Shown here: positions 44,833 through 50,221 of the stretch, piece by piece
Position numbering within the stretch: the first letter of the stretch is position 1
Layout of the letters: each line of letters opens with the position of its first letter
From: Candidatus Poribacteria bacterium
GTDB taxonomy: Bacteria > Poribacteria > WGA-4E > WGA-3G
Assembly: GCA_022828145.1 (NCBI GenBank)
Contig: JAJEJA010000118.1
Coordinates: 1 to 64,000, forward strand
Direction: 5' to 3'
Length of the DNA: 64,000 bases
Notes under the pieces: generated by a model
What the model was told of the DNA's origin: nothing
Database searches by the model: none
What the model saw: the letters and a program-made list of their open reading frames with translations, nothing else
Translations under genes and position numbers: made by a program

Positions 44833-46005
44833 TTATGCAGGTGGTGTATAGCTTGCATCAACCCATCCGCGCTGTTTACCACTTTCAACAGCAGTATTTA
44901 TGAAATGGACGCCGCGTGCACCATCCTGAACAGTTGGGAAATCGGTGTCAAATTCTCCAGGACTATCTCCTGCAATTTTTGCCGACATTGTACGGGAAGC
45001 GTTGACATAGATGTTTGCAAAAGCTTCAATAAAAGCTTCAGGATGTCCGAACGGTATCCTTGAGTTGTGTTGCGTGATTTCCGCGAGATAATCATTTCCT
45101 CTTTTGTAAACCTGTTCGGGTCCATCGGGGAAACGTACGGATAGATAGTTAGGATTTTCCTGATGCCATTCTAACGAAGCATCTGTCCCATATACACGTA
45201 TGCGTAGATTGTTTTCCTCTCCAACTGATATCTGTGAGGCGTATAAGACTCCTCTGACACCCTTCTCATAATGAACTAATATATTACCATCGTCTTCTAA
45301 GAGGCGTCCTTCAACGAAGGTCGTCATATCAGCGCATATCTCTTCCATTTCAAGTCCTGTGATGTAGTGTGCCAGGTTCTCAGCATGGGAACCGATGTCT
45401 CCGATACATGACGACGCGCCGGCTTGTTTGGGGTCGGTCCGCCAGACGGCTTGTTTTGCGCCTTCGTCTTCCAAGAATGTTGACAACCATCCTTGTGGAT
45501 ATTCAACGACGATTTTTCGTAATGTTCCAAGTTTACCCTCTTTAACAAGCTCACGCGCCTGTTTAACCATCGGGTAACCGGTATAATTGTGTGTTAATGC
45601 GAAGACAACATCGTTTGATTTTACTAAATTGCAGAGGGATTCCGCATCTTCAACTGTCGTTGTCATCGGTTTATCACAGACGACGTGGAAACCTGCTTCT
45701 ATGAAGGTTTTTGCGACATCATAATGTACGTGATTGGGTGTGACGATAGAGACGAAGTCAATGCGTTCACCGTCGGGTAGTTGACTCTCTTTTTCTGCCA
45801 TCTCCTTATACGACCCGTAAGTTCTATTATCATCAAGAAAGAGTTCAGCACCTTGTTGTTTTGATTTTTCTGGTGACGATGAAAATGCACCAGCGACCAG
45901 ATCAATCTCACCATCCAACGCAGCAGCCTTGCGATGCACAGCTCCGATGAAGGCGTCCGGTCCACCACCAACCATTCCATAACGTATTTTCCTACCAAGT
46001 GGCAT
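44833..46005 (-). CDS. Gfo/Idh/MocA family oxidoreductase (long form)
   Basis: 390 residues from the ATG at 46005 (MPLGRKIRYGMVGGGPDAF); an upstream in-frame ATG at 46062 would add an unlikely basic leader. It has FVSIVTPNHVHYDVAKTFIEAGFHVVCDKPMTTT (the EKP motif as DKP) and GASSCIGDIGSHAENLAHYITGL (catalytic-type His). Residues about 270-300 mark the longer inositol/levoglucosan-type subfamily. It lies 52 bp before the isomerase. Confidence 0.9.
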   Translation of the reverse strand: MPLGRKIRYGMVGGGPDAFIGAVHRKAAALDGEIDLVAGAFSSSPEKSKQQGAELFLDDNRTYGSYKEMAEKESQLPDGERIDFVSIVTPNHVHYDVAKTFIEAGFHVVCDKPMTTTVEDAESLCNLVKSNDVVFALTHNYTGYPMVKQARELVKEGKLGTLRKIVVEYPQGWLSTFLEDEGAKQAVWRTDPKQAGASSCIGDIGSHAENLAHYITGLEMEEICADMTTFVEGRLLEDDGNILVHYEKGVRGVLYASQISVGEENNLRIRVYGTDASLEWHQENPNYLSVRFPDGPEQVYKRGNDYLAEITQHNSRIPFGHPEAFIEAFANIYVNASRTMSAKIAGDSPGEFDTDFPTVQDGARGVHFINTAVESGKQRGWVDASYTPPA

Positions 46006-46197
46006 ATTTTGTATCCATTCCTTTTTTCTTTTGCGTTGAAGTCTGTACTCTACTGGCAACAATTACTGGCAACAATACATCAACGCACATGATAGATTAA
46101 AATTCCTTGTATATGAATTATGTCATGTTTTTTGACAATTTTCAAGGTATTTTTGTCAAGAACGCTGAATTCCTTTAACTGTCCTCTCGCTTTTTTC

Positions 46198-46226
46198 TTG
46201 ACATACTTTTTATGGATTGCTAAAAT
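46198..46226 (+). promoter_or_regulatory. Near-consensus promoter reading into the IsrB element
   Basis: TTGACA (46198-46203), 17 nt, TAAAAT (46221-46226); start expected near 46233. It lies outside the element, about 60 bp before its left hairpin. It may have been the promoter of the plus-strand operon at 47659-52855 before the insertion, and could now also transcribe the omega-RNA. Confidence 0.65.
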
Positions 46227-46297
46227 ACAAATTGCAGTCTACACACGGGAACACTTCAACCGAGTTGTCGGAACTCAGGAGAATAGTGTGTCAGTAA

Positions 46298-46495
46298 CCC
46301 CAAGCTAAAGCCTGGGGCTTGTGCGAAGCGGATGCCAACCGTTCACTCCACGAGTTAAACTATTGACTACAGTAAAATATCACATTACGAACTATTGGTA
46401 AGTTATTGATGTTTCAGATGCTCCCCAAGTCTGAATCCACTCTGTAATGTGATCTGGATGGGGCAACATATACCCTGAAAGGGAGATTAGAACTT
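46298..46495 (+). ncRNA. Probable omega-RNA of the IsrB system
   Basis: About 200 nt with no open frame between the left-end hairpin and isrB. Visible structure: a 10-bp long-range stem ATCACATTAC (46379-46388) with GTAATGTGAT (46444-46453); inside it TTCAG (46413) with CTGAA (46431); a possible pseudoknot CCCCA (46423-46427) with TGGGG (46459-46463); and CCCT-GAA-AGGG (46473-46483) just before the start codon. Known omega-RNAs of IscB/IsrB lie at this position and carry the guide at the 5' end, taken from the flanking DNA. The guide should then be the roughly 16-20 nt left of the element. Confidence 0.65.
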
Positions 46496-47524
46496 ATGTT
46501 TATTCCAGTAAAGACGAAAGATGGACAGCAACTGATGCCGACGCATGCATCGCGTGCAAGAAAACTTATCAAGCGTGGTGAAGCAACGCCTTATTGGTCT
46601 AATGGCATCTTCTGTATACGCCTTAACAAAGAACCCGGTGATCGTGAGACGCAGGATATAGGAGTAGGCGTGGATCCTGGAAGCAAGAAAGAAGGATTTA
46701 CTGTAAAATCAGAGTCTCATACGTATCTAAACGTGCAGGCTGATGCACACAACAAAGTGTCAAAAAAGGTTGCTAAGCGTAGGGAGTTGCGTAGGTCAAG
46801 GCGTTCACGAAAGTGTCCAAACCGAAAGAATAGGACTAATCACCTTGCTAACAAAGAGCGTATTCCAGCAGGCACGCGTGCAAGATGGGATTGGAAGTTG
46901 CGTATCCTTGATTGGCTTTCAAAACTATATCCAATCACACACGTCTGTGTGGAAGATATAAAAGCAAGGACTATTGAACGTGCTAAGAAGTGGAATCAAT
47001 CATTTAGTCCGTTGCAAGTAGGTAAAGAATGGTTTTATTTTGAAGTCGAAAAGCGATGGGAACTGCTAACCCTGCAAGGTTATGAAACGAAAGAGATACG
47101 CGATAGACTTATCTTGAAAAAATCATCTAACAAGTTAGCAGAAACTTTCGGTGCTCATTGTGTTGACTCGTGGTGTCTTGCATATCACACTGTAGGCGGT
47201 GAACCTATACCTGATAATACAGATATTTTCTGCATTTCACCGATACCGATTGCAAGGCGAAATCTACATCGTGAAGTCCCAAAGAAAGGTGGCATTCGTA
47301 GCAGATACGGTGGGACAATTCTAAAAAATGGGTTGGTGAAGAATACACTTGTTAAACATGCCAAATACGGATTGACACGACTGGCAGGTATAAACTCAAA
47401 AGGGTTGTTTTCAGTCTACAGCCTTGATGGAAAACGACTAACAACAGGTGCAAAACAGAAAGACTTTACAATTTTGAGAAAACTAAACTTCAATTATAGG
47501 AGCGGGCATTCCTCCCCAAGCTAA
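46496..47524 (+). CDS. IsrB-like RNA-guided nickase (RRXRR/PLMP, RuvC without HNH)
   Basis: 342 residues. PLMP/RRXRR domain (MFIPVKTKDGQQLMPTHASR, then ARKLIKRGEA; about 1-45); RuvC-I IGVGVDPGSKKEG with D60; arginine-rich bridge-helix-like RRELRRSRRSRKCPNRKNR (95-113); RuvC-II THVCVEDIKA with E153; RuvC-III GAHCVDSWCLAY with H221 and D224; then RRNLHREVPKKGGIRSRYGG (254-273). RuvC-II runs on without the HNH insert of IscB. IsrB proteins nick non-target DNA guided by omega-RNA. The stop lies inside the right-end hairpin, as usual. All three RuvC acidic sites are kept, so it looks active. Confidence 0.87.
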   Translation: MFIPVKTKDGQQLMPTHASRARKLIKRGEATPYWSNGIFCIRLNKEPGDRETQDIGVGVDPGSKKEGFTVKSESHTYLNVQADAHNKVSKKVAKRRELRRSRRSRKCPNRKNRTNHLANKERIPAGTRARWDWKLRILDWLSKLYPITHVCVEDIKARTIERAKKWNQSFSPLQVGKEWFYFEVEKRWELLTLQGYETKEIRDRLILKKSSNKLAETFGAHCVDSWCLAYHTVGGEPIPDNTDIFCISPIPIARRNLHREVPKKGGIRSRYGGTILKNGLVKNTLVKHAKYGLTRLAGINSKGLFSVYSLDGKRLTTGAKQKDFTILRKLNFNYRSGHSSPS

Positions 47525-47544
47525 AGCATGGGGTCTCCTGCCCG
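47503..47544 (+). other. Right-end hairpin of the IsrB element
   Basis: Outer stem CGGGCA/TGCCCG, internal loop TTCCT and TCTCC, inner stem CCCCAAGC/GCATGGGG with loop TAAA. The isrB stop codon TAA (47522-47524) is the inner loop. Confidence 0.7.
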
Positions 47545-47658
47545 AAGATTGATGAACGAAGCACAGAAATACCTATTTGATTTGACAAGTTATCTCATTG
47601 TTGAAAACACACTTTCAACGATGGAACTTCCTCACATCAGGCATTGATGGATTGTATT

Positions 47659-48646: not shown

Positions 48647-49471
48647 ATGACGACATTAGATGAAAGATTGGAAGCATATAAAACCGATGGTTTCACAATC
48701 TTTGAAAGCGTTTTTGATGAAACACAGATGCAACTTTGGAAAGAAAAACATAAAGAACTTTCTGCGGCAAATAATGGACAAACATGGTTTGGAAACACTT
48801 TAGAATTGGCACCGGATCTTATGTGGCATGCTGTCTCTAATCCTACAATTCTTGAGTTTCTTGAGAAAGTTATGGGACCGTTTGTTCAGTTAGACAATCT
48901 TACCTTGGCAGCATTTCCCTCAATTAAAACAGATGATGCTGAAGGTAAAGTATCTGGTTGGCATCGGGATCGGTGGGCACATGTGCCTTTTACGGATGCC
49001 TATCATCGACCGAATGCCATTAATGCAATCTCATACCTTCAAGACTTAACGGATGCGTTTGGTCCTCTCCGTGTGATTGTAGGTTCCCACCTGAGACCGC
49101 TGACCATCGCAGATGCTGACCGTAGTAAACCGCATCCTGATGAAACACTCATCCACATGAAAGCGGGTGATGTGGTAATCACTCACAACGGACTTGTTCA
49201 TTCTGGCACACCGAATACATCGGGTGAATTGCGTTACTTTTTCAGTATTTACTACAACTTGACGTGGCTTAAACATACTGACCATCATTCCGGCCCACAT
49301 ACACAAAGATTACTTGCTGAAGCAAAAGAAGCAAACAACCATCAACACATGCGACTTCTCGGTGTTGATGAGCAACTTCAGCCACGATGCAACTCCGGTT
49401 TTCTTCAGTGTGATGAAGAACGATGGGAAGCCTGGGTTGCAGCTGATCGTGCAGCAATTAAGGAGGAATAG
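48647..49471 (+). CDS. Phytanoyl-CoA dioxygenase (PhyH) family protein
   Basis: 274 residues. Fe(II)/2-oxoglutarate dioxygenase fold: YKTDGFTIFESVFDETQM at the start, the HxD half of the facial triad in SGWHRDRWAHVP, the distal His in THNGLVHSGTPNTSGELRYFFSIYY, and the 2-oxoglutarate-binding Arg in LRYF. PhyH-like enzymes are greatly expanded in sponge symbionts and hydroxylate many small molecules. It is 3 bp before a second member. Confidence 0.92.
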   Translation: MTTLDERLEAYKTDGFTIFESVFDETQMQLWKEKHKELSAANNGQTWFGNTLELAPDLMWHAVSNPTILEFLEKVMGPFVQLDNLTLAAFPSIKTDDAEGKVSGWHRDRWAHVPFTDAYHRPNAINAISYLQDLTDAFGPLRVIVGSHLRPLTIADADRSKPHPDETLIHMKAGDVVITHNGLVHSGTPNTSGELRYFFSIYYNLTWLKHTDHHSGPHTQRLLAEAKEANNHQHMRLLGVDEQLQPRCNSGFLQCDEERWEAWVAADRAAIKEE

Positions 49472-49474
49472 TTA

Positions 49475-50221
49475 ATGTCTGATGGACCTGTTGTACCTCC
49501 TAAACTAAATGTTGAACTTGATTATGAACTGCAGCAAGAAGTGAGTTTTTTCCTGAAATGGGGTTACCTAATTGTCAATGATGCTGCAACTCCTGAACAG
49601 ATTGAGGAACTTCGGAACGCTCTTGATGCAAGTTACGAGAGACATAATAAGAATCAATTCATCGGTGAACTGCTTGAAGAGGATGATAGGTTTGCTTTTT
49701 TGCTTGATAATGGACCAGTGATGAGACGGATGGAAGCGATTTTGGGGACTTGTGTTCAGTTACATAGTGCAACAGCGCGTATCACTGAACCTGGTACACC
49801 TGACCAGAATTGGCATCGTGATGGTCCTTGGCCAGTTGACCCATTCGGAACACCTTACGGTAGCCTTCCAGCACAGATAAACTGCGGTTATTACCTTGAT
49901 GAAGTGACCGATGAAGCAGGACCGACCGTTGTACAACCCGGTAGTCATAGAGCACCCTTTCGTCCGCCGCCAAGTCCTATTCAACTTCCGGACGAGAAAC
50001 GTGTGTTGGTTTCACCTGGGCAAGCAGTAATGTTTGATGGATGGACGTGGCACCGGGGTGCTGCAAATACTTCAACTCAACGTAGACGGGTCTGTCTTAT
50101 GTGTTATCAGAATGCATGGATGAAGTCGCGAGAACCCTTTAACGGGCCACGTGTTACCAAACTCCGGGAAGAAGGTACACCGAAGCAAAAGTTATTACTC
50201 GGTGCTATTCCAAAATGGTAA
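49475..50221 (+). CDS. Phytanoyl-CoA dioxygenase (PhyH) family protein
   Basis: 248 residues; GGAGG upstream of the ATG lies inside the preceding gene. Conserved FFLKWGYLIVNDAATPEQIEELRNALD, NWHRDGPWPVDPFG (H-x-D), AGPTVVQPGSHR and WTWHRGAANTSTQRRRVCLM (distal His and Arg). It is diverged from its neighbour, so the two probably act on different substrates or steps rather than being a recent duplication. Confidence 0.92.
   Translation: MSDGPVVPPKLNVELDYELQQEVSFFLKWGYLIVNDAATPEQIEELRNALDASYERHNKNQFIGELLEEDDRFAFLLDNGPVMRRMEAILGTCVQLHSATARITEPGTPDQNWHRDGPWPVDPFGTPYGSLPAQINCGYYLDEVTDEAGPTVVQPGSHRAPFRPPPSPIQLPDEKRVLVSPGQAVMFDGWTWHRGAANTSTQRRRVCLMCYQNAWMKSREPFNGPRVTKLREEGTPKQKLLLGAIPKW

What the first reader, a model, noticed from the sequence alone, without database searches (positions are those of the whole stretch)
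46198..47545. IsrB-type RNA-guided nuclease element with a visible omega-RNA and an external promoter
The 342-residue protein keeps D60, E153 and D224 of RuvC, a PLMP/RRXRR N-terminus and an arginine-rich bridge segment, but has no HNH insert. That is the IsrB layout, the proposed small ancestor of IscB and Cas9. Upstream lie 200 nt without an ORF but with a 10-bp long-range stem and a possible pseudoknot. Matching end hairpins bound the unit and no tnpA is present. A TTGACA-17-TAAAAT promoter in the flank would produce a transcript with host-derived 5' sequence, which is where an omega-RNA guide is expected.
Basis: partly seen in the sequence, partly recalled or inferred. Interest (0 to 1): 0.85.

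Follow-up and report, generated by a model that had tools for sequence, protein, structure and literature searches.

The report
RNA-guided nickase transposon with target-reading code
The stretch is a small jumping gene that carries an RNA-guided DNA-nicking protein (IsrB) and its guide RNA, sitting just before the start of a bacterial gene, and its relatives suggest that the protein and the DNA end of the element change together when the element changes its landing site.

Summary
The limits were wrong: a sister species keeps the empty site, which sets the element at 46290-47551, between the ribosome-binding site and the ATG of a phytanoyl-dioxygenase-like gene. The 'external promoter' is that gene's own, so guide and omega-RNA would be read from it. 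The family is multi-copy in Candidatus Poribacteria, with stand-alone omega-RNA elements. New here: (1) over 108 Poribacterial copies the tetranucleotide beside the right end (RTGA, ATGG, ATAA, ATAG) covaries with two TAM-domain residues (window R314, T317, aligned to DtIsrB R323, Q326): 107 of 108 for base 3, 106 of 108 for base 4; R314 ranks first of 342 columns for base 3. (2) Two bases beside the right-end hairpin follow an IS608-like DNA-guide rule (70 of 82 parsed ends). (3) TnpB elements of the same genome carry closely similar ends in mirror image. ATAA/ATAG targets are absent from the six IsrBs assayed in the paper read. Independent switches are few, and nothing was tested at the bench.

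The parts
46198..46226 (+). host promoter TTGACA-17-TAAAAT outside the element; would drive guide + omega-RNA + isrB
   Evidence: sequence; TTGACA-17-TAATAT found 53-64 nt before the start codon in 5 of 7 relatives looked at (L304, L288, L289, L290, L293; not L291, L294)
46270..46289 (+). predicted 20-nt guide: last bases of the host 5' leader, includes the host AGGAG ribosome-binding site (46277-46281)
   Evidence: directly abuts the element end fixed by the empty site; position and length by analogy with DtIsrB (PMC9581776); not tested
46290..47551 (+). whole element, 1262 bp, no target duplication
   Evidence: empty site in G013:C118, where window 46289 and 47552 are adjacent; joined flanks align over 158 nt at 88%
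46290..46495 (+). omega-RNA scaffold (HEARO-like), up to the isrB start codon
   Evidence: Rfam HEARO 31.2 bits, E 0.0007, below gathering score 83; covariation in 63 sequences, the window's included; own model R1 216 bits (the window copy is a member of the model)
46298..46317 (+). left-end hairpin (SL1 of the omega-RNA)
   Evidence: 7 of 7 pairs with changes on both sides, 89.3% of cells paired
   Evidence: helix 5 (9 pairs counted): 96.9% of cells paired, 5 of 9 pairs with changes on both sides
46496..47524 (+). isrB, 342 aa; stop codon lies in the loop of the right-end hairpin
47435..47446 (+). codons of R314 and T317 (with the two between), aligned to DtIsrB R323 and Q326, the TAM-reading residues
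   Evidence: alignments; association with the flank
47503..47544 (+). right end: outer stem (47503-47508 with 47539-47544), linker TTCCT (47509-47513), inner hairpin 47514-47533, linker TCTCC (47534-47538) whose bases 47536-47537 are the proposed DNA guide
   Evidence: same architecture in relatives; complement rule 70 of 82; reversed, 98% identical over 58 nt to the left end of TnpB elements of the same genome
47552..47555 (+). ATGA: predicted TAM, and start codon of the interrupted host gene
   Evidence: empty site; host ORF intact, 262 aa, PhyH family, in G013
47552..47647 (+). remnant of the host PhyH gene: 31 codons and stop left after an internal deletion
   Evidence: comparison with L304 and L288-L291

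Best explanation
An IsrB-type OMEGA transposon of the IS200/IS605 superfamily. Shown by sequence: IsrB protein, omega-RNA with covariation, exact ends, empty site, multi-copy family, TnpB elements with mirror-image similar ends. Inferred: a Y1 transposase (TnpA) supplied in trans moves it; a two-base DNA guide beside the right-end hairpin sets the landing tetranucleotide; after landing, the host's 5' leader becomes the RNA guide, read from the host promoter; IsrB loads this RNA, reads the same tetranucleotide as TAM through residues 314 and 317, and nicks the empty allele, favouring return or retention of the element by recombination. When a lineage changes landing site, DNA guide and protein residues change together.
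For: Family; catalytic residues 67 of 67. RNA. Ends and empty site. Target-protein association: 107 of 108 (base 3) and 106 of 108 (base 4), unprompted ranking over 342 columns. Tree without the TAM-domain columns: target base 3 changes 7 times, residue 314 6 times, base 4 6 times, residue 317 5 times; independent pairs on starred branches go the same way in 4.5 of 5 and 4 of 6 on average and never the other way, while the crossed traits go the same way in at most 0.3. Outside Poribacteria, read by eye: first viral set of 31: R+Q or R+L with ATGA 20, R+Q with ATGG 1, RR with ATGG 1, RR with ATGA 1, no clear right end 8; second set of 31 new loci: R+Q with ATGA 21 (L362 with a weak end; several share a contig or its near-copy), R+K with ATGG 1, unclear 9. 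Lab precedent: R323 reads G3, Q326 reads A4, Q326R accepts G4 (PMC9581776). DNA guide: IS608 precedent (PMC5934647). Similar ends of TnpB elements.
Against: No bench data. TAM domain and right end are neighbours and can be swapped together by recombination; few independent switches, sign tests only p 0.06-0.13; near-identical copies are among the 108. Exceptions: L169, L216, L165, L232, L253, and L203, which I left out of the 108. By MI/sqrt(H) three other columns (S340, S306, A297) rank above T317 for base 4. ATAA/ATAG were seen only in the Poribacterial set. No tnpA locus read has an end of the RTGA type of its own; 5 of 15 printed show the ATGTAG type. The window's host gene has decayed.
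Confidence: 0.85

Rival explanations
1. The protein residues only hitchhike: the landing site is set by the DNA guide alone, and the TAM-domain end of isrB follows because it is physically linked to the right end.
For: Adjacent in DNA; TAM-domain types look modular by eye; the last isrB codons are shared with the left end of a TnpB element.
Against: The top columns of an unprompted scan (R314 for base 3; T317 for base 4 by MI) align with those that contact TAM bases 3 and 4 in DtIsrB, where Q326R widened the TAM to G4 (PMC9581776). Nearby columns such as S306 and G337 rank lower for base 3; for base 4, S306 comes close.
Confidence: 0.15
2. A decaying or inactive copy: no longer mobile or active.
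For: In the own genus 4 of 18 genomes, the own included, have a protein match; the host gene decayed; several copies in the genome are fragments.
Against: Intact ORF and catalytic residues, intact RNA structure, empty site in a sister species, a copy on C84 82% identical at another place.
Confidence: 0.08
3. The start-codon position is actively chosen rather than the outcome of an RTGA target plus loss of insertions inside genes.
For: 40 of 96 unique sites are start-like against 271 of 1438 RTGR control sites outside ORFs (odds ratio 3.1, p 6e-7); in the viral sets many sites look like gene starts by eye (not counted).
Against: GTGA sites are start-like in 1 of 7; ATAA and ATAG sites (11) cannot be by definition; start codons make up a good part of RTGA sites outside genes, and the controls contain real gene starts.
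Confidence: 0.25

Closest known systems
DtIsrB (Desulfovirgula thermocuniculi IsrB, PDB 8dmb, PMC9581776)
   Same: Full-length match (E 8.6e-34 phmmer; 1.3e-59 profile), fold TM 0.80, no HNH, R323/Q326 counterparts, NTGA-type flank
   Different: 29% identity; Q326 is T in the window copy; relatives have ATAA/ATAG flanks, whereas the six IsrBs assayed in that paper have TAMs NTGA/TTGA, NTG or NTGG
HEARO RNA (Rfam RF02033)
   Same: Same place and overall layout, model matched from 1 to 211 of 211
   Different: 31 bits, far below the gathering score 83; six relatives searched gave no match at gathering score
IS608 / IS200-IS605 transposition (PMC5934647)
   Same: Two guide bases beside the end hairpin complementary to target bases in the same order (A+16:T-3, A+17:T-4); no target duplication
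   Different: The element has no tnpA; the coding direction is mirrored, so the guided end is the right end of the IsrB unit
TnpB elements of the same genome (L275, L276)
   Same: Left end 98% identical over 58 nt to the reversed IsrB right end (61 nt with the ATGAA flank); right end similar to the reversed IsrB left end (scores 14.5 and 14, shuffled maxima 7 and 8)
   Different: Encode TnpB (OrfB_IS605, Cas12f1-like_TNB), a different nuclease family, in the opposite sense

Membership tests
IsrB | PLMP/RRXRR N-terminus, bridge helix and split RuvC with its acidic motif | tested here: met
IsrB | no HNH domain, about 350 aa | tested here: met
   five IscBs of relatives show HNH with the same tool
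IsrB | groups with IsrB rather than IscB | tested here: met
   fold ranking; tree of 47 proteins, (DtIsrB and TnpB are not in the tree)
IsrB | structured omega-RNA upstream, guide at its 5' end from the flank | tested here: met
   structure by covariation; flank origin by empty site; that it serves as guide was not testable
IsrB | NTG(A)-type TAM at the right flank | tested here: met
   ATGA at the empty site, by position only
IsrB | RNA-guided nicking of the non-target strand | not testable with these tools
   needs biochemistry
IscB | HNH insert | tested here: not met
HEARO RNA (Rfam) | score above Rfam's gathering threshold | tested here: not met
   31.2 against 83 bits
IS200/IS605 superfamily element | hairpin ends, no target duplication, fixed target tetranucleotide | tested here: met
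IS200/IS605 superfamily element (autonomous) | own Y1 transposase | tested here: not met
   none beside the copy; two Y1_Tnp matches elsewhere in the genome

The most novel reading that the evidence does not exclude
A readable three-way code: landing-site bases 3 and 4 are written twice in each IsrB element, as two DNA bases in the transposon end (for the transposase) and as two amino acids (R or Q at 314 for G or A; T/Q/L/F or R at 317 for A or G) for the nuclease. Natural IsrBs with NTAA and NTAG TAMs would then exist, and IsrB and TnpB elements would share one transposase-recognised pair of ends whose two strands serve opposite guide RNAs.
Probability: 0.7. Interest if true: 0.8.

Novelty: new variant of a known kind. 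Interest (0 to 1): 0.72.

Why it matters
IsrB is the proposed small ancestor of IscB and Cas9. A natural set of about 100 copies with four landing sites gives a testable rule for its TAM, suggests that the protein and DNA target readers change together, and ties IsrB and TnpB elements to similar ends. It also explains where the guide transcript would come from in this locus: the promoter of the interrupted gene.

Tried and rejected
Taking 46198 as the left end: rejected by the empty site. NCBIfam guided_IscB: only the N-terminal half matched, below cut-off. Structure from the shallow alignment A1 had mean pLDDT 53 and was not used; the deeper A4 gave 84.7. An automatic parser of the right-end linkers failed on 26 of 108; of its 12 mismatches in 82, L165, L169 and L216 are flank exceptions in which guide and residues agree with each other, and most of the rest look like a register shift of one or a small indel by eye. 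An earlier, stricter parser left 30 of its loci without a call and was replaced. Rows dropped: of 124 unique Poribacterial loci 120 entered, 10 had no call, and of the 110 called I dropped L147 (arm and residues misplaced) and L203 (arm misplaced; R+Q with ATAA by the rule, so it would be an exception). In one search L098 was mislabelled ATGA; its flank is ATGG, as one search finds. I considered insertion at start codons as a special mechanism; the enrichment is real but modest in Poribacteria, so I kept it as a rival. Paper searches were seen as capped listings; besides the papers cited I saw passages of PMC13180657 and PMC9956272. In these I saw no report of the TAM-residue-guide association, of ends shared by IsrB and TnpB elements, or of these Poribacterial elements. 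The 2009 HEARO paper and the 2021 OMEGA paper are not held and may already describe parts; I recall, without a source here, that HEARO elements were reported next to ATGA or GTGA.

Full report
What was checked. The ORF 46496-47524 (342 aa) matches Pfam RRXRR with 110 bits and, over its full length, DtIsrB of PDB 8dmb (E 8.6e-34); a 45-row profile matches the same chain with E 1.3e-59. IscBs match only in their N-terminal part. A predicted structure (mean pLDDT 84.7) finds DtIsrB first (TM 0.80 by query length, E 1.5e-27) and IscBs next. No HNH is found, whereas five RRXRR proteins of related genomes carry one. In a tree of 47 proteins the window copy falls with the 10 other Poribacterial IsrBs used, apart from those IscBs. 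D60, R99, E153, H221 and D224 are invariant in 67 of 67 copies; in the larger set of 151 aligned proteins a few rows depart at D60, E153, H221 or D224, which I did not follow.

Host and spread. The window lies in an unnamed 5.06-Mb assembly. The named-genome scan found 166 relatives and kept the best 80, all from records titled Poribacteria; that the window's host is one too is inferred. Of 59 genomes searched, the own included, 25 have a match, some of them IscBs; in the own genus 4 of 18. The own genome has one other full copy (C84), a nearly full one at a contig start (C33), and fragments.

Exact ends. In the sister species G013, window 45602-46289 and 47552-47619 match side by side, and the joined flanks align over 158 nt at 88% identity. 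So the element is 46290-47551, without target duplication, and the flank begins ATGA. In G013 this ATG opens an intact 262-aa PhyH-family gene, preceded by AAAGGAGG; four further relatives (L288-L291) have the same start. In the window the gene is reduced to 31 codons. It is therefore most likely the host gene's promoter, and the bases that would serve as guide are the host's leader.

Omega-RNA. Rfam HEARO matches 46290-46526 at 31.2 bits, E 0.0007, under its gathering score. Of 64 sequences picked for low redundancy I aligned 63, the window's included (L099 left out). 93.7% of cells of the named structure are paired, 33 of 47 pairs show changes on both sides (shuffled mean 20.6, 0 of 500 as high), and sliding the partners gives at most 41.4% paired and 19 such pairs. 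Nine of ten helices have at least one pair with changes on both sides, among them the left-end hairpin and the long-range stem. The CCCC/GGGG pseudoknot is conserved in sequence and so neither supported nor refuted by covariation.

The target code. For 120 Poribacterial loci a rule blind to the protein took the last G-[AG]T[AG][AG] after the outer stem of the right end as the flank; 110 gave a call, and I kept 108. Base 3 is G with R at position 314 in 94 and A with Q in 13, with one exception (L169). Base 4 is A with a residue other than R at 317 in 94 and G with R in 12, with two exceptions (L216; L165, which can also be read as GTGA). Ranking all 342 columns, R314 comes first for base 3 and T317 first by mutual information for base 4 (with the entropy-corrected score S340, S306 and A297 stand above T317). 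These positions align with DtIsrB R323 and Q326 in two alignments; the paper says that R323 reads G3, Q326 reads A4, and that Q326R accepts G4 (PMC9581776; parts 1 and 2 and section 8 read, passages elsewhere). On a tree built without the TAM-domain columns both target bases and both residues changed several times; independent pairs run the same way and never the other way, though too few for a significant sign test. Recombination of the 3' part of the element could also give this picture.

The DNA guide. The right end has an outer stem, an inner hairpin and two linkers. In the linker 3' of the hairpin, bases 3 and 4 are typically TC for RTGA, CC for ATGG, TT for ATAA and CT for ATAG, that is, complementary to target bases 4 and 3. 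The rule holds in 70 of 82 automatically parsed ends, 26 of 108 being unparsed. IS608 reads its target in the same way and order, A+16 with T-3 and A+17 with T-4 (passages of PMC5934647). The linker 5' of the hairpin also changes with the target: TTCCT, TTCCC or similar, TACAT, TACAC.

Similar ends. Two TnpB elements of the same genome (L275 and L276; OrfB_IS605 and Cas12f1-like_TNB) begin with the reversed IsrB right end, 98% identical over 58 nt (61 nt with the ATGAA flank), and end like the reversed IsrB left end (alignment scores 14.5 and 14, shuffled maxima 7 and 8). Of seven loci with an isolated right end that I took from the 29 matches (L108-L114), five show a TnpB N-terminus beside it, and two (L109, L112) an omega-RNA-only element. 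The genome's stronger Y1 transposase match (C3, cut by the contig end) has a left end of the same layout with TTATC and ATGTAG, the reversed ATAA type. Of 15 tnpA loci whose upstream DNA was printed, 5 show ATGTAG (L021, L115, L123, L130, L133), and L134 and L281 show it; none has an RTGA-type end of its own (in L116 it belongs to the IsrB copy). Hence the inference, not shown, that one TnpA serves IsrB and TnpB elements with different DNA guides.

Outside Poribacteria. In two sets of IsrBs from viral contigs, read by eye, position 4 mostly follows the same rule. First set, 31 loci: R+Q (once R+L) with ATGA 20, R+Q with ATGG 1, RR with ATGG 1, RR with ATGA 1, no clear right end 8. Second set, 31 new loci: R+Q with ATGA 21, R+K with ATGG 1, 9 unclear; several of these share a contig or its near-copy. 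Position 3 was G in the sites read.

Start codons. In the joined flanks of 96 unique sites 40 open an ORF of at least 100 codons with a closed frame upstream; of 1438 control RTGR sites outside ORFs 271 do (odds ratio 3.1, p 6e-7). 24 of the 40 have a ribosome-binding-site motif, against 15.7% of those controls. The controls include real gene starts. I read this as an RTGA target plus loss of insertions inside genes, with a chosen site as the rival.

Most likely working. Shown: anatomy, ends, RNA structure, association of target, protein residues and DNA guide. Inferred: movement by a TnpA in trans; transcription of guide and omega-RNA from the host promoter; nicking of the empty allele so that the element is kept or restored, in the manner reported for TnpB in plasmids (passages of the preprint PMC11870625). 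Verdict: a member of the IsrB kind, with a spread of targets that I found in no paper seen here and a compact code that can be tested directly.

Noticed in passing
G000 contigs C85 and C89 (left side), C106 and C107 (right side); L280, L268, L112, L109: Stand-alone omega-RNA elements: RNA scaffold and right end without isrB, broken by the assembly, seemingly at least two copies.
   Followed up: partly
L279 from about 876 (G000 C94): A mini-element of about 0.22 kb with left end and right end but little of the RNA core, placed before an ATG that opens a Gfo/Idh-like reading frame (by eye).
   Followed up: partly
L116/L281 (G034 C2): An IsrB copy sits exactly at the start codon of a Y1 tnpA that is followed by a tnpB-like gene; what looks like the unit's own left end (TTATC, ATGTAG) lies upstream.
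   Followed up: partly
window 47552-47647: The interrupted PhyH gene has lost its middle; two further reading frames nearby (48647-49471, 49475-50221) look PhyH-like to me but were not searched.
   Followed up: partly
L227, L231, L234, L243, L252, L254 (viral contigs): IsrB genes without a clear right-end hairpin, some followed closely by another gene's start: possibly fixed in phage genomes.
   Followed up: no
L375 (viral contig): K at the position aligned to 317, with an ATGG flank: a possible further letter of the code.
   Followed up: no
L046-L050: HNH-bearing IscBs live in genomes of the same family, order or class as the window's host.
   Followed up: partly
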